Part shown: piece after piece, positions 1 to 9,193 of the stretch
Layout of the letters: each line of letters starts with the position of its first letter
Position numbering within the stretch: the stretch's first letter is position 1
Assembly (NCBI RefSeq): GCF_000022485.1
Contig: NC_012623.1
Span: 310,001 to 374,000, forward strand
DNA length: 64,000 bases
Reading direction: 5' to 3'
Source of the DNA: Sulfolobus islandicus Y.N.15.51
Lineage (GTDB): Archaea; Thermoproteota; Thermoprotei_A; Sulfolobales; Sulfolobaceae
The notes under the pieces: generated by a model
The model's database searches: none
Told to the model about the DNA's origin: nothing
Seen by the model: only the letters and a program-made list of their open reading frames with translations
Program-made: the position numbers and the translations under genes

Positions 1-887
1 GAGGAAAATGCAGATCTATAAATCCTCAACCTAAGTTGTTTATCCTTCACGTCCTTTATCATATGCTCCGGAGTTCTCCTAGGCAAGTCCTCTAAAACTA
101 TGACACTCCTACTTTCAAAAGCCTCTTTAACGATCAGCTTGGCTAATTTCCTCCTAATGTCTACTTTCTTATCCCTCTCCCTCAGCCTCTTTAACTTCCT
201 CCTCACTTCCCTATCCTTAGTTGACTTACCAGTGATTGTCAACTTCCTCCTATACTCATACCCCAGAGTAATTTTCTTAGTGTTAGTCTCTAAAAGCATC
301 GGTTTTCCATCAACTAATACAGAGACTGAATTCTCATTTAGATCAACTGGGATGAAACCCTTAGGTTCATAAGGTTTAACATCCTTCTTAAAAATGACGT
401 AGAACTCTACAACATTTCCCTTCATCAGCCTAAACCTGGCCTCACTCGCAATCAACCAACCCTTATTATAATATCTCCAGAAGATCTTAGGGAAGGTTGG
501 TGAAATGAGAATCCTACTCCTCTTTGTGGAAATTGAAATCCTATCAAGGTTGAACTTCCACAGATGATCGTCGAGGTGAATAGTAACTCTCCTCACAGAC
601 GGTTTCTCAGTGTAACTTTTACCTCTCTTCTTCAACTTCTCAAAACTGTCTAATCTCTCGCTTGCATCCTCACAAGCTGTGTAGATGTAGTGTGAGGGTA
701 AGTCCTTATGTTTCTCCCTCTCAGTCTTGTAAACTCCAGCTTTAATCCTGGTGAAGGAGGTAGTCTTGTTTGACAGCCCATAATTTATTGCCTCCTCTAG
801 AACCTCTCTGTACTCCTTCTCGACCTCCTTAAGTGCTGAGTATGTAGAATAGTCAACCCTAACCCTTAACTTCACTGTCCTCTCCAC
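1..887 (-). CDS. tnpB: TnpB RNA-guided nuclease of IS607-type element, 3' part outside window
   Basis: The frame stays open from a GTG at 887 to the window edge (about 295 residues), overlapping the recombinase gene by 29 nt. It has the TnpB order: a basic N-terminal half, then the first RuvC motif (VDLNENS, about residue 175) and the second RuvC motif (VLEDLP, about residue 265). The last RuvC Asp and the zinc finger would lie outside the window. TnpB proteins are omega-RNA-guided DNA endonucleases that promote retention of the element after excision. The guide RNA would come from the missing end. There is no in-frame stop in the visible part, so it may be active. Confidence 0.85.
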   Translation of the reverse strand, partial: MERTVKLRVRVDYSTYSALKEVEKEYREVLEEAINYGLSNKTTSFTRIKAGVYKTEREKHKDLPSHYIYTACEDASERLDSFEKLKKRGKSYTEKPSVRRVTIHLDDHLWKFNLDRISISTKRSRILISPTFPKIFWRYYNKGWLIASEARFRLMKGNVVEFYVIFKKDVKPYEPKGFIPVDLNENSVSVLVDGKPMLLETNTKKITLGYEYRRKLTITGKSTKDREVRRKLKRLRERDKKVDIRRKLAKLIVKEAFESRSVIVLEDLPRRTPEHMIKDVKDKQLRLRIYRSAFS

Positions 888-1500
888 TCAACTCACCTAT
901 TAACTTTTTTACGCCTTGAACTAGGAGTGTTTTCTTGTGACTCCTCATTCCGTAAATTTTCCCTGCGAATGAGGTAATGATGTAGATTAAGTCCTCAACT
1001 AGCTCTTGTGCGTCATCTTTGGGCTCCTCACCGAAAACTACTTCAATCTTAACTCCCATGGTTGAGAAGAACTCCTCAATGTACTCAAATCCAAATCTTG
1101 TTAACCTATCTTTGTAGGTTATTAATACGATGTCGACACTCCTTCCCTCAACAAGTTTGAATAACTTAAGCAATCCTTTCCTTTGTGTGTTCAACCCGCT
1201 TGCAATATCTTTCAGTACTTCAACTACCTTGTAACCTTTTGCCGTTGCGTAGTTCGTTAGGTAGTTTATTTGTCTTTCCAAGTCTTCTCTCTGATCGGTA
1301 GAGGAGACCCTTGCGTAAATTACAGCCCTCGTCTCTTCCCTCCTTTCTAAGTACTTCTTTATCTCGCTGTAAGGTATCCTATACTTCCCTCCTTCAGTCG
1401 TTACCACCTTTATTTTTCCTTCTCTAATCCACCGTAGGAGTGTTGAGTATGAAATGCTGAGTAGTTGGCAAGCCTCCTTAGGTCTCAGTAGTCTCTCCAC
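859..1500 (-). CDS. tnpA: IS607-type serine recombinase (transposase TnpA)
   Basis: The 213-residue protein has an N-terminal MerR-like helix-turn-helix (about residues 5-50, with the SYSTLLRWIREG recognition segment) and then a small serine-recombinase catalytic domain. YARVSSTDQ at about residues 62-70 carries the nucleophilic serine (S66 or S67), and the TYKDRLTRFG motif lies near residue 130. DNA-binding domain first is the IS607 order, opposite to resolvases. It catalyses excision and integration through a circular intermediate. Its end overlaps tnpB, indicating coupled expression. The length is normal and the frame intact. Confidence 0.92.
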   Translation of the reverse strand: MERLLRPKEACQLLSISYSTLLRWIREGKIKVVTTEGGKYRIPYSEIKKYLERREETRAVIYARVSSTDQREDLERQINYLTNYATAKGYKVVEVLKDIASGLNTQRKGLLKLFKLVEGRSVDIVLITYKDRLTRFGFEYIEEFFSTMGVKIEVVFGEEPKDDAQELVEDLIYIITSFAGKIYGMRSHKKTLLVQGVKKLIGELSGEDSEVKG

Positions 1501-5453: not shown

Positions 5454-5497
5454 TCTTATTAAAATTTATATTTAAAAAATAAACTACTTTACAAAGT

Positions 5498-5598
5498 AAT
5501 GGTTAAGGAGTGGAAAACTTCACCCAAGGAGATGGATAGCCTCTTATATTTAAATAATCCTTTTTTCTGAAATTCTTTTAGTGATGTTAATGATGCTC
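5498..5598 (+). pseudogene. Possible small gene start interrupted by IS110 copy 1
   Basis: An ATG at 5498 sits 26-30 bp after a TATA-like TTTATATTTA (5463-5472), the leaderless arrangement common here. It reads MVKEWKTSPKEMDSLLYLNN and then a stop after a run of six T. With five T the frame continues as SEILLVMLMMLL, a membrane-helix-like segment, right up to the IS110 left boundary. This suggests a small membrane protein gene split by the insertion. The family is not recognised and the evidence is weak. Confidence 0.3.
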
Positions 5599-5627
5599 CT
5601 TATATAAAACATATTAGTCAGATCTGA

Positions 5628-5758
5628 GTAATACAGATCTGACTGGGGTGTAGGCCGTTGACTTCCTTGGGCTTAAAGCTCGACGGGGAGCTTGGCCTCC
5701 TCCAATTCGAACCGGAAGTTGGGCAAAAAGCCCGAATAAAACATAAGGGTGAGTATAA
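5628..5758 (+). ncRNA. Candidate bridge RNA in the left end of IS110 copy 1
   Basis: A TATA box (TTATATAA, 5600-5607) lies about 25 bp before this GC-rich segment, which contains no gene and precedes the transposase. It folds into several stems: the palindrome CAGATCTG repeated at 5620-5627 and 5634-5641, a GGGCT/AGCTC hairpin (about 5669-5681), a GGGC-AAAAA-GCCC hairpin (about 5722-5734) and a CCTCCAATT/AATTGGAGG pairing (5698-5706 with 5757-5765). IS110-group elements carry their bridge RNA in the left non-coding end. The segment most different between the two copies (about 5649-5667) is the candidate target-binding loop. The exact RNA ends are inferred. Confidence 0.55.
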
Positions 5759-6704
5759 TTGGAGGCCCCAGTCGCAGGAATAGATGTATCAAAAGATAAA
5801 TTAATCATGTATTTTCAAGGTAAACTCTACGAGTTTACTAATGATAAGCGAGGTTATGAGGAGATAAGGAAGATCTTACCTAAGGATTGCAAAGTGGGTA
5901 TTGAGAGTACTGGAGTTTACCACGTTAACCTAGCAAAGTACTTGATGGGTGAGTATGATGTTAGGATCATTAATCCCTTTATTCTCAAGAAGTTCAAGGG
6001 TTTTAGGGGTAAGAAGAGTGATAAGAATGATGCTAAAAAGCTTGCGGAATTAGTTGTAAGTATGGGTAGTGGGTTTACAACAAGTGATGCTAGGGAGTTG
6101 ACTAGCCAGTGGGATTTTGTTACTAGGAGTATTGCTAGGGTTAAGAATAGGTTGAGGAGGGATTTGGTACTTTTAGGCTATAGGGATAGTTTGTCTAAGA
6201 AAAACTTGGAGGAGGTTTTGAGGGGTGGGGATAGTATTGTCTTGGCTGAGGTTTCTTTTGGAGGAGCTTGAGAGGCTTAAAACTAGGAAGAGGGAGATTG
6301 AGAAGGAGCTTGAGAATGTTGTTTCCAAGGATAGTTTGATTTTCACTATTCCCGGTATTGGTAAAACCTTGGGTTGTATTATTTTGGCTAGGGTTGGTGA
6401 TGTTAGGCGCTTTAGTGATAAGAAGAGGTTTGTTGCTTATTGTGGTCTCGATCCTCTTGTTGAGTCTAGTGGTAAGAGTGTTGTCTCAAGGGGTATATCC
6501 AAGAGGGGTGATGCTGTTTTGAGGAGGGCTTTTTACTTGGCAGCTTTGACTGCCATCAAGGTTAATCCTGTTATCAAGCGTTTTTATGAGGAGCACAAGG
6601 GTAGGCTTAGGGGTAAGAAGTTGATTGTTGCGTGTGCTAGAAAGTTGGCTGTTATTACTTGGGCTGTGCTGTATTATAATAAGCCCTTTGATGCTAGTGA
6701 GTAA
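5759..6704 (+). pseudogene. IS110-family transposase, copy 1, with one internal frame shift
   Basis: The first frame (TTG start at 5759, no other start possible after upstream stops) gives the RuvC-like DEDD domain beginning VAGIDVSKDKL, with IESTGVYH near residue 50 and KSDKNDAKKLAELV near residue 85. At about 6250 the homology passes to the +1 frame (LLEELERLK), which continues with the Tnp_20 domain: TIPGIGKTLGC, then YCGLDPLVESSGK, to 6704. A T4 run at the junction would restore one frame of about 315 residues if one T were removed. The second copy has the same junction, so the shift is inherited or functional rather than a local error. Confidence 0.8.
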
Positions 6705-6724
6705 AGCAGGTTTCATCACTTGCG

Positions 6725-6779
6725 TAAGTAGTGTGGACTATGCTCGATTTTTCATGGAAAGGTTTTTATACCGGAAGCT
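6725..6779 (+). repeat. Direct repeat R1 (first copy) with promoter-like core
   Basis: This 55-nt segment recurs at 7852-7905 in the same orientation with about 80 percent identity. Both contain AAGTAGTGT, GCTCGATTTT and a purine-rich BRE plus GGTTTTTATA TATA-like core. It could be an insertion-element end or a mobile promoter. Confidence 0.7.
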
Positions 6780-6794
6780 CCCCAGCTCGATTGA

Positions 6795-6985
6795 GGGCTT
6801 AATGAGACTGAGGGAGGAGCAAAAAGTATCATTTTCCCTTTCACGGGATCCAGACAACGTGGATGATGGATCCCCTCAGTTATGGCTTTCTGTCTACCCC
6901 GACTACCCACCAAATGAGATCGTGAATCGATGTTGGGAACAATGAACCCCTCATGGAGGAACCTATATGAGGCGGTGAGGACTCA
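6795..6985 (+). ncRNA. Candidate structured RNA downstream of repeat R1
   Basis: This stretch is far richer in G+C than its surroundings and has no long frame of normal codon use. About 25 bp after the TATA-like core of repeat R1 it contains nested perfect complements: ACTGAGGG (about 6809-6816) pairs with CCCTCAGT (about 6874-6881), enclosing GGGATCCA (about 6845-6852) and TGGATCCC (about 6867-6874); the two stems share one base at the junction. Promoter, structure and composition suggest an RNA gene, possibly IS-linked. A 106-residue frame crossing it is not protein-like. No known RNA family is recognised. Confidence 0.4.
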
Positions 6986-7036
6986 GTTAAAAGCCTCTTA
7001 AGTTAGATTTAAATTATTATAAGAGTAATTTAATAT

Positions 7037-7849
7037 GTGAGTTTAGAAGAAGAAATTAAAAAAGTACTGCTTAATAATCCATCGATATTAGTGGACGTTC
7101 TAACTGCTAAACCAGAGATAGTTTATCAGGTTTTAGCTAGGATAACTCCATGGCAAAACCTGGCTACTAAGCAAGATATTGAAAGACTAGATAGGACTAT
7201 AAATGAAATTAAGAACACGATGGCTACTAAGCAAGATATTGAAAGACTAGACAAGGAGATTGAGGAAACCAAGAAAATAATGGCTACTAAGCAAGAGTTG
7301 GAGGAAATTAAGAACGTGATGGCCACAAAAGAAGACTTGAAGGGAATGGCCACTAAGGAGGATCTAAAGACCATGGCCACAAAAGAAGACTTGAAGGGAA
7401 TGGCCACTAAGGAGGATCTAAAGACCATGGCCACAAAAGAAGACTTGAAGAGATTAGAAACTATTATTACCGGTCTTGGGGCTAGATGGGGAATTATGAA
7501 TGAGGATTCCTTTAGGCAAGGAATTGGTGAGCTTTTGAGTAATAGTGGTTGGAAGGTTTCTAGGGAAGTGCTTTATGATAGGAGTGGATATGTTTATGAT
7601 GAGCCTTCTGATGTTGAATATGATATTGTAATTAAAGACGGTAGTGTTATATTGGTTGAAATCACTTCCTCTTTAAAAAGAGGGGACTTACCAACAATAA
7701 AGAGGAAGAAGGAGTTCTATGAAAAAGTTAAGAATATTAAGGTTAATTTAGTTTATGTTGTAACACCATTTATTCACGATAGGTATCCTGAAAGAGTTAA
7801 GGCAATGGCTAAGGATATGGGGATAGAAATAATATACCCCTCAAGCTGA
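7037..7849 (+). CDS. Coiled-coil protein with C-terminal PD-(D/E)XK nuclease-like domain (DUF3782-like)
   Basis: The 270-residue protein starts at GTG 7037. Residues 1-45 form a helical head, about 45-145 a coiled coil built of near-identical ATKQDIERLD and MATKEDLK units, and about 150-270 an alpha/beta domain. The latter shows DVEYDIVIKDGSVILVEITSS: an Asp, a strand, then E-x-T, as in restriction-like PD-(D/E)XK folds. Such genes are multicopy in Sulfolobus and their function is unproven; a nuclease or DNA-tethering role is an inference. It lies alone between IS elements, flanked by the two R1 repeats. Confidence 0.7.
   Translation: MSLEEEIKKVLLNNPSILVDVLTAKPEIVYQVLARITPWQNLATKQDIERLDRTINEIKNTMATKQDIERLDKEIEETKKIMATKQELEEIKNVMATKEDLKGMATKEDLKTMATKEDLKGMATKEDLKTMATKEDLKRLETIITGLGARWGIMNEDSFRQGIGELLSNSGWKVSREVLYDRSGYVYDEPSDVEYDIVIKDGSVILVEITSSLKRGDLPTIKRKKEFYEKVKNIKVNLVYVVTPFIHDRYPERVKAMAKDMGIEIIYPSS
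7319..7450 (+). repeat. In-frame 54-bp tandem repeat (about 2.5 units)
   Basis: The unit encodes two 9-residue heptad-like blocks (MATKEDLKG then MATKEDLKT). Successive units are identical at DNA level, including third codon positions, so the array is recently expanded or kept uniform. It lengthens the coiled coil. Confidence 0.85.
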
Positions 7850-7851
7850 TC

Positions 7852-7905
7852 AAGTAGTGTAGACTAGGCTCGATTTTCTTTAGAATGGTTTTTATATCGG
7901 ATGCT
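7852..7905 (+). repeat. Direct repeat R1 (second copy)
   Basis: This copy is about 80 percent identical to 6725-6779, including the GGTTTTTATA TATA-like core. It begins 3 bp after the stop of the coiled-coil gene and ends 5 bp before inverted repeat R2. The two R1 copies bracket that gene. Confidence 0.7.
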
Positions 7906-7909
7906 TTGT

Positions 7910-7992
7910 GGCGTTCAGTGATAAATCTTTCGGTTGAACTTCAAGCATAGTGTCAACTAACATTGCCACGTGGGTCCTTTCAACCCACGTGG
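7910..7992 (-). repeat. Inverted repeat R2, copy A, with a perfect 10-bp hairpin
   Basis: The reverse complement of this 83-nt segment matches 12302-12384 at roughly 85 percent. One end is a perfect hairpin (7966-7992, arms CCACGTGGGT and ACCCACGTGG with a 7-nt loop). The other end contains a TATA-like AAGATTTAT and the shared CTGAACGCC. Hairpin-tipped, IR-less ends resemble those of IS200/IS605 elements, so a relic end is possible. Confidence 0.75.
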
Positions 7993-7995
7993 TTT

Positions 7996-9193
7996 ACGGT
8001 AGACCCAAAATCACCTCCTTAAAAATAAATCTATAGTGTAAATAAGTGTTTCAATTACATTAAATGTAAAATTCTCTGGATTGAATAAATCAGGAAATAA
8101 AAGAATTAATAATAATCTAAACTCCTCTCTCCCCACCTCCCCCTTGAATATGGTATATAAGGAGTAGAGTACAAGGGCCAGCACGAAGATCAACGTGCGA
8201 AAAACAAACTTAGTAGAACCAGTAAATGGAAGAAAAGCCTTAATGTTCCTATAAGAGGTCTCTATGGGACCCCTTACCTTATTATACAAATCCAACACTT
8301 CCCTCTTGGATAGGTCTAGATTAGTAGCCCTAGCAAAATAAACAAGACTCTTTCTCCTCACTTTTTCCTTGCTGTACACGAGAAACCTGAACTTGACCTG
8401 CTCATCCCTCCTATGCCTCTTACTATTAGTTGTGTAATCCCCGTCAAACTCCTCATACACCTTAACATCCCCAGCCGGGACAGCAACTATATACTTAAAC
8501 TGTGAAATGAAATTGAGCACATCAACAGTGTAGAAACCAGCGTCAAGAGTTATCAACCTTATCTTGAATCCCATTGCCATTACTTGCTCCACAAGAACCT
8601 TCACTATCTCGTCCTTAGTCATACCGTTCACTTGTAGGCAAGTAAAAGTACTTTCCCCTTATACTTGGTTGTTGCGTAGTTCCACGAGTTTCCTTTTTCA
8701 GAGCTCCCTTTCACTGGTTTCCCATGCCACGTCTTGGTTGTCCAGTCTATTGAAAGATCTATCTCCTTTACCCCCTTTAATATCTCCAAGGATATTTTCC
8801 TAGCTCTTTCCAATAGCTTTTCAATCACTTCCATCCCTTGTTTCTCTACGTAATTCCTCACGTTCTGTGGGGATACGTCATACGCTCTGGACTTGTTCTC
8901 TACAGAGTCGTTCCACAAACACGCGGAGATGAGAGTTTTCGCTACCTTCTCTACCTTTTCCCCTTGGAAGTTCAGCATGGAAAGTAATTTATATCCTATT
9001 TGTTGAATGTTATTTTGGTGAGGGAGGCTTGGTGTTACCATCTTCCTATCTCACGTGGTAATACTCCATCTCCCTCACCTTAAACCCTTTCTTCAATTGA
9101 ATTCTTTATACTCTTATAAATTTCTTTATCTTTTATAAATTCGATATTATCCTACCAGAAATATTTTTTCTAATATAATTTTAGGTCTACCGC
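7996..9193 (-). mobile_element. IS4-like insertion sequence (ISC1225-like), decayed
   Basis: Imperfect terminal repeats bound the element: CGGTAGACCCAAAAT at the left and its counterpart ATTTTAGGTCTACCG at the right, with one mismatch. The length of about 1.2 kb is normal for this group. No clear target duplication flanks it: the left side is the R2 hairpin and the right side is unrelated. The transposase is split by one frameshift. The ISC1225 name is a guess from length and protein type. Confidence 0.65.
8011..9041 (-). pseudogene. DDE transposase of IS4-like element, frameshifted
   Basis: The first part (9041 to 8628, 137 residues) contains SIDWTTKTWHGKP with the first catalytic Asp. The second part (GTG 8631 to 8011) contains LITLDAGFYT with the second Asp and YNKVRGPIETSYRNIKAF with the Y-R-E-K signature Glu. 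They overlap in different frames at AAGTGAACGG, where one expects a continuous LLLAY-VNGMTKDE. Together they make a normal length of about 340 residues. The gene is probably inactive unless it is frameshifted. Confidence 0.8.

What the first reader, a model, noticed from the sequence alone, without database searches (positions are those of the whole stretch)
6725..6985. Structured RNA candidate behind a duplicated promoter-like repeat
A 55-nt repeat with a BRE/TATA-like core occurs twice (6725 and 7852). Behind the first copy lies a GC-rich, non-protein-like stretch with nested perfect stems (ACTGAGGG/CCCTCAGT around GGGATCCA/TGGATCCC). Behind the second copy lies the R2 hairpin unit. Two different structured segments behind the same promoter suggest a mobile or IS-related RNA gene family.
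Basis: partly seen in the sequence, partly recalled or inferred. Interest (0 to 1): 0.55.

Follow-up and report, generated by a model that had tools for sequence, protein, structure and literature searches.

The report
Guide-RNA-like mobile element, split by IS110
The stretch is the decayed right half of a small jumping DNA whose intact copies carry a conserved RNA shape like the guide RNA of TnpB nucleases, and the promoter-like repeat in front of it is simply the end of another jumping gene that landed inside it.

Summary
The repeat and stems exist, but the pairing of "promoter" and "RNA" is an accident of insertion. The 54-nt repeat is the right end of an IS110 element (5599-6777), with a remnant at 7852-7905. 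The GC-rich stretch (6780-6986) is the right half of a ~315-330-bp IS200/IS605-type non-autonomous element (5493-6986) that the IS110 split. One locus shows all stages: empty in two relatives, element intact in this genome, element plus IS110 in a third relative. Intact copies share both ends with TnpB elements. In place of tnpB they carry a ~115-nt two-helix domain followed by the TnpB guide-RNA (omega/reRNA) end; 41 copies show strong covariation (18 of 38 pairs with double changes). The inner stem (GGATCC) is real; the outer stem is private to this copy. The window copy is degenerate and folds no better than chance. Most likely the intact elements express a stand-alone TnpB guide RNA. The IS110 left end contains a bridge-RNA-like loop matching its insertion sites across copies; two programs aim at the element's first helix and at IS200/605 right-end termini. 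No expression data. New variant of a known kind (PATE/TnpB-derived element).

The parts
5489..5492 (+). TTAC, the sequence 5' of the left end of the non-autonomous IS200/605-type element (target motif, not duplicated)
   Evidence: conserved TTAC/TTACA before the left end in most of 60 aligned copies; precise empty sites TTTAC|flank in two relatives at another copy's locus
5493..5598 (+). left half of the non-autonomous element: left end (GC-rich), TATA-like TTATATTTAAATA, start of the structured domain (AGTGATGTTAATGATGCTC, 5' arm of helix P1)
   Evidence: 5501-5600 joins directly to 6778 on in six sites without IS110, L022 and L024-L028; left end shared with full TnpB elements
5599..6777 (+). 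IS110-family element (CT core at 5599-5600 and 6778-6779) inserted in P1 of the element; transposase in two overlapping frames 5759-6271 and 6225-6704
   Evidence: Pfam DEDD_Tnp_IS110 and Transposase_20; near-full copies elsewhere in the genome end at the same point; orthologous with/without pair L107/L053, 2-bp overlap
5659..5691 (+). candidate target-binding loop of an IS110 bridge RNA: left guide TGACTTCC 5659-5666, right guide CGGGGAGC 5684-5691
   Evidence: loop matches own insertion-site flanks across copies better than shuffled pairings; the window copy itself fits its site poorly
6726..6777 (+). first copy of the 'promoter-like' repeat = IS110 right end, TATA-like TTTTTATA about 10 nt from the end
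6780..6986 (+). right half of the split element, ends in TCAG (6983-6986): rest of P1, P2, remnant of the TnpB guide-RNA-like right end
   Evidence: covariance models: 5' domain 6758-6875 78 bits; right-end domain 6878-6987 53 bits against 138-148 bits for four intact copies (L050-L053) in this genome
   Evidence: GGGACT/AGTCCC in most other copies, double changes in 5 of 6 pairs
6906..6937 (+). helix P4, CCCACCA / TGTTGGG (one pair broken in this copy); P3 lost here
   Evidence: P4 conserved and covarying in other copies and TnpB elements; window row
7852..7905 (+). second repeat copy = right-end remnant of an IS110 of the same group, no transposase attached
   Evidence: 83% to 6726-6779
   Evidence: about 23 copies; in 19 of 19 loci examined (L031-L049) an IS110 transposase C-terminus ends 17-42 nt before it

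Best explanation
Shown: 6780-6986 is the right half of a non-autonomous IS200/IS605-type element (a PATE-like element of 315-330 bp, TTAC|...GTCAG|) cut in two at helix P1 by an IS110-family insertion; the promoter-like repeat is the IS110 right end. Intact relatives keep the left end with a TATA-like box and the right end of TnpB elements, but replace tnpB by a conserved two-helix domain (P1, P2) joined to the TnpB guide-RNA end (P3-P5). Inferred: the intact element is transcribed from its left-end promoter as a ~245-nt RNA ending at the right end and running into the flank; TnpB made by full elements in the same cell uses it as a stand-alone guide RNA and cuts the empty TTAC+flank site left after excision, which keeps the element in the population, while a Y1 TnpA supplied in trans moves it. 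Also inferred: the IS110 reaches these elements by bridge RNA, with one program aimed at P1 and another at the IS200/605 right-end terminus. The window copy is decayed and probably no longer works.
For: Empty sites join 5501-5600 to 6778 on. Natural series at one locus: G006 and G001 empty at TTTAC|, G000 with a 329-bp element and no duplication, G002 with the same element plus an ~1.18-kb IS110. Ends shared with TnpB-coding elements. Covariation: 41 copies, 38 pairs, 92.7% of cells paired against 87.5% shuffled; 18 pairs with a change on both sides (10.6 shuffled); 77 such cells (26.3 shuffled), 0 of 500 shuffles. Right-end helices shared by 25 non-autonomous copies and 6 TnpB elements: 94.9% paired, covariation score 0.272 against 0.149, 0 of 500. 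The structure persists although the reading frame is broken by stops or frameshifts in many copies. 43 of 57 matches of the 5'-domain model are directly followed by the right-end domain, 35 of 40 above 60 bits. In this genome 22 right-end matches: 8 behind the 5' domain, 8 directly behind the TnpB zinc-ribbon domain, 6 neither (my count). IS110 loop against site: 157 of 264 matches, 125.3 shuffled, 1 of 20000 (left arm); 91 against 77.2, 13 of 20000 (right arm).
Against: No expression, binding or cleavage data. The window copy folds no better than shuffles, has lost P3, and its IS110 loop (TGACTTCC) does not fit its own left flank (GATGCTCC, 3 of 8). In the right-end alignment two of five measures do not clearly exceed shuffles (8 pairs with double changes, reached by 56 of 500; further pair types, 246 of 500). 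Related sequences can beat shuffles without structure; the slid-partner control helps, but the structure was drawn from the same copies. This genome has no intact Y1 transposase, so current mobility is doubtful. Some copies keep an open frame, so a small peptide is not fully excluded. 6 of 22 right-end matches fit neither class.
Confidence: 0.72

Rival explanations
1. The element is only a passive deletion derivative moved by TnpA; helices are kept because TnpA needs hairpins at the ends, and internal structure is leftover.
For: PATEs of this sort are known in Haloquadratum (PMC3119063, passages); ends are shared with IS605/TnpB elements.
Against: P1 and P2 lie far from the ends and have no significant match in TnpB elements, and P2 shows double changes in 5 of 6 pairs; the TATA-like box and P3-P4 are kept too. 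A leftover would hardly keep compensatory changes across genera of the family.
Confidence: 0.3
2. The element encodes a small protein (frame SSIEGLMGLWEE...).
For: An open frame runs through several copies; small putative ORFs were reported in SMN2 elements (PMC3839810, passages).
Against: Early stops or frameshifts in many copies, for example a stop after 3 codons in 5 of 9 G013 copies; an ATG is often missing; changes follow base pairing.
Confidence: 0.05
3. One reading: one promoter module duplicated in front of a family of RNA genes.
For: The repeat carries a TATA-like core and would point into both segments.
Against: The repeat is the IS110 end; IS-free copies of the element lack it and carry their own left-end TATA-like box; the two downstream segments are unrelated.
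Confidence: 0.03
4. IS110 insertions in these elements are chance hits in abundant repeats, not guided.
For: The window copy's loop does not match its site; 22 of 42 classified copies lie in neither target class.
Against: Loop and flank covary across copies; 20 of 42 copies lie at the element's P1 (4) or at IS200/605 right-end termini (16).
Confidence: 0.1

Closest known systems
PATEs (palindrome-associated transposable elements) of Haloquadratum, for example HqIRS71
   Same: IS605-derived, no transposase, no target duplication; HqIRS71 keeps a non-coding TnpB C-terminal segment; attacked by other mobile elements (PMC3119063, passages)
   Different: different lineage; here a conserved extra 5' domain with covariation and a kept promoter-like box; the attacker is IS110
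TnpB guide RNA (reRNA/omega RNA), for example S. islandicus TnpB7 and ISDra2
   Same: same position relative to the transposon end; reRNA overlaps the tnpB 3' end and right end (PMC11043419 and PMC8612924, passages); TnpB7 worked with an RNA made from another plasmid (PMC11043419, passages)
   Different: no tnpB in cis; a separate P1-P2 domain replaces the coding part
SMN1 / SMN2 elements of Sulfolobus
   Same: SMN1 about 320 bp; non-autonomous, thought to be moved by an IS200/605 transposase (PMC3718332, PMC3839810, passages)
   Different: the SMN2 candidate repeat in pMGB1 has no blastn match to this element; SMN1 sequence not available, identity untested
IS110/IS621 with bridge RNA
   Same: DEDD plus Transposase_20 enzyme, long non-coding left end, loop matching the site (PMC11208160, passages); CT core as in IS621 (recalled)
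   Different: archaeal; targets are IS200/605 ends and the non-autonomous element, much as IS621 targets REP sequences in E. coli

Membership tests
PATE / IS200-IS605 non-autonomous element | shares both ends with an autonomous IS200/605 or TnpB element | tested here: met
PATE / IS200-IS605 non-autonomous element | insertion 3' of a fixed short motif without target duplication | tested here: met
   one locus with empty orthologues, TTTAC|; TTAC in the alignment
PATE / IS200-IS605 non-autonomous element | no transposase gene inside | tested here: met
   329 bp at the locus; no Pfam match to the window frame 6625-6945
PATE / IS200-IS605 non-autonomous element | moved in trans by a Y1 TnpA | not testable with these tools
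   own genome has only a 23.5-bit partial Y1 match; 14 of 25 family genomes have a match
TnpB guide RNA (omega/reRNA) | homologous in sequence and helices to the tnpB 3' end plus right end | tested here: met
TnpB guide RNA (omega/reRNA) | 3' end at the transposon boundary so that the flank is the guide | tested here: met
   by position only, GTCAG| end in intact copies
TnpB guide RNA (omega/reRNA) | transcribed, bound by TnpB, guides cutting | not testable with these tools
   no RNA or protein data
IS110 with bridge RNA | DEDD and Transposase_20 domains | tested here: met
IS110 with bridge RNA | non-coding end with a loop complementary to target | tested here: met
   permutation over copies; the window copy itself fits poorly
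IS110 with bridge RNA | promoter rebuilt at the circle junction | tested here: inconclusive
   TATA-like sequence near the right end; no transcript data
SMN2 | sequence similarity to SMN2 of pMGB1 | tested here: not met
   no blastn match at the pMGB1 repeat; that this repeat is SMN2 is my inference
SMN1 | sequence identity to SMN1 | not tested
   no SMN1 sequence at hand; the primary paper is not held

The most novel reading that the evidence does not exclude
A family of tnpB-less elements across Sulfolobaceae that live as stand-alone, trans-acting TnpB guide RNAs with an added lineage-specific 5' RNA domain, and that are in turn hunted by IS110 elements whose bridge RNAs are programmed against the guide-RNA helix and against IS200/605 right-end termini: one RNA-guided transposon preying on another.
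Probability: 0.4. Interest if true: 0.75.

Novelty: new variant of a known kind. Interest (0 to 1): 0.52.

Why it matters
If intact copies act as stand-alone guide RNAs, TnpB systems have non-autonomous parasites or partners of their own, and the added P1-P2 domain would show how a guide RNA evolves once freed from the coding sequence. The IS110 loops give a natural series of bridge-RNA programs with their sites in archaea, aimed at other mobile elements, and one locus preserves every stage of the nesting.

Tried and rejected
Rfam over the window: nothing. C/D-box RNA reading of GTGATG...CTGA: considered by eye and dropped, no conserved boxes in the alignment. RNAalifold alone gave a poor mixed structure of 17 pairs with a long-range helix, so I named helices from a column scan plus P3 drawn by eye and tested them. 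Small-protein reading: rejected for most copies. IS110 register: the fixed-register loop test misplaces a few copies by one base (for example L263, L268, L287, L289); I left them in, which lowers the score. Only 40 of the roughly 150 listed left-end match rows were fetched, chosen because they cover the loop. Alignment A1 used 41 of 69 located copies; broken or near-identical ones were left out by hand; A2 and A3 used 32 and 25 of these 41. PF07282 rows were cut short, so TnpB adjacency was counted for this genome only. Papers: Berkner and Lipps 2007 (PMC1855697) and the archaeal IS review PMC1847376 are not held. A pattern scan of genome contigs found only two MAG contigs, probably because near relatives are left out there.

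Full report
1. Observation. The 54-nt repeat at 6726-6779 and 7852-7905 is real (83%) and its core occurs nowhere else in the window. Both stems can be read, but they compete for C6873-C6874, and the strand 6784-6986 folds no better than its shuffles (z -0.81).

2. The repeat. 5759-6704 encodes an IS110-family transposase in two overlapping frames. A search of the own genome gave 48 matches; five near-full copies stop at window position 6781-6783, and a sixth (L004) runs on because it sits in the same kind of element. The repeat is therefore the right end of this IS. Reading the junctions, the IS is 5599-6777 with CT at both edges. The copy at 7852-7905 is a remnant of such an end without a transposase. 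In 19 of 19 loci looked at it lies just behind the end of another IS110 transposase; it is reversed here.

3. The stretch. In six places of the own genome (L022, L024-L028) the sequence 5501-5600 runs straight into 6778 on, without IS110. The stretch is thus the right half of an element that starts after TTAC at 5493 and ends in TCAG at 6986. In a search with one copy, 25 of 41 genomes (own and relatives) had some match; those include matches to the shared ends of TnpB elements. Full-length elements with the same ends encode TnpB: left end with a TATA-like box, tnpB, right end overlapping the tnpB stop. In the non-autonomous element the gene is replaced by about 115 nt that have no significant match in the six TnpB elements compared (best E 0.21).

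4. One locus shows the order of events. G006 (95%) and G001 (84%) are continuous across the site, TTTAC|flank. G000 carries the 329-bp element there (L053). G002 has the same element with flanks of 99.7% and 98% and an extra ~1.18 kb at P1, the IS110. Two further genomes of the seven searched had no match and one a partial one.

5. RNA structure. In 41 aligned copies from own, related, viral and MAG sequences, five helices P1-P5 (38 pairs) are 92.7% paired; 18 pairs have changes on both sides, 77 cells against 26.3 in shuffles (0 of 500), and partners slid by 1-3 columns give 43-58%. P1 is paired but varies mostly on one side. P3-P5 are shared with six TnpB elements, including ATV and plasmids pHVE14 and pMGB1; there two of the five measures do not clearly beat shuffles. 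Two intact copies fold better than most shuffles (z -3.45 and -1.91). The frame through the element is interrupted in many copies.

6. Distribution. The 5'-domain model R1 matched 8 of 117 genomes of the order, all in the window's own family (stricter filters for over 40 genomes). 43 of 57 R1 matches are followed within 40 nt by the right-end model R2; of those above 60 bits, 35 of 40. In this genome R2 has 22 matches: 8 behind R1, 8 directly behind the TnpB domain PF07282, 6 neither. Copies also occur in the virus STSV4 of S. tengchongensis, one IMG/VR contig and two contigs of a MAG labelled Marsarchaeota.

7. Mechanism. Published work shows that TnpB uses RNA from the tnpB 3' end and right end, with the flank as guide, and is thought to cut the empty donor site (PMC8612924, passages), and that a S. 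islandicus TnpB worked with guide RNA made from another plasmid (PMC11043419, passages). An element that keeps a promoter-like box, the guide-RNA end and its helices without tnpB fits a guide RNA acting in trans. This is inference. Shown are homology, position and covariation; not shown are transcript, binding and cutting. I put the guide-RNA step itself at about 0.5 and the anatomy at about 0.95; 0.72 is for the whole.

8. IS110 guiding. In 40 fetched copies plus the window, the left end holds a loop whose two arms match the flanks of the copy's own site (157 of 264 positions in 33 distinct pairs, 125.3 shuffled, 1 of 20000; right arm 91 against 77.2 in 26 pairs, 13 of 20000). Of 42 copies classified, 4 lie at the element's P1 and 16 at the terminus of IS200/605 right ends in reverse, 22 elsewhere. 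The window copy carries the second program although it sits at P1; an exchange between copies or an off-target insertion would explain this. Bridge RNAs of IS110 and the promoter rebuilt at the circle junction are known (PMC11208160, passages); IS621 inserting in REP sequences is in its reference list.

9. Known or new. PATEs derived from IS605 and attacked by other mobile elements are known in Haloquadratum (PMC3119063, passages). SMN1 (320 bp) and SMN2 are known in Sulfolobus (passages); SMN2 as I find it in pMGB1 does not match, SMN1 could not be compared. Searches for TnpB with MITE, PATE or non-autonomous wording and for IS110 with IS605 in Sulfolobales listed no paper, judged by title and abstract start, on such an RNA or such IS110 programs; the library is open-access only and I did not read every listed paper. 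I file it as a new variant of a known kind.

10. Organism.

Noticed in passing
window 7908-7993: The R2 hairpin (CCACGTGGGTTGAAAGGACCCACGTGG in its IS110 sense) lies in the 3' flank of an IS110 subfamily; Cbp1 is reported to bind the 3' flank of ISC1229, an IS110 element (PMC10883916, passages). Whether this is that site is untested.
   Followed up: no
window 7997-9192: A DDE-type insertion sequence (DUF4322 and DDE_Tnp_1 frames, 36-nt imperfect inverted ends beginning CGGTAGACC) sits directly behind the R2 unit.
   Followed up: partly
window 5759-6704: The IS110 transposase is split in two overlapping frames; another copy (L110) has the same split, so it may be a shared frameshift or a programmed one.
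   Followed up: no
window 7037-7849: A DUF3782 / PDDEXK_10 gene with in-frame 27-nt tandem repeats lies between two IS110 right ends of the same orientation.
   Followed up: no
window 859-1500 (-): Serine recombinase with an HTH_17/MerR domain, as in IS607-type elements (IS607 label recalled).
   Followed up: no
L165, L166: Intact-looking copies of the element in two contigs labelled Candidatus Marsarchaeota G1 (MAG): transfer or misbinning.
   Followed up: no
G008 genome: About a dozen very similar intact elements but only broken Y1 transposase matches; the mover may be lost or lie on a plasmid or virus.
   Followed up: no
L029 1371-1600 (G000:C1:222694-222953): A strongly decayed copy of the element in another intergenic region, still seen by both models.
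   Followed up: partly
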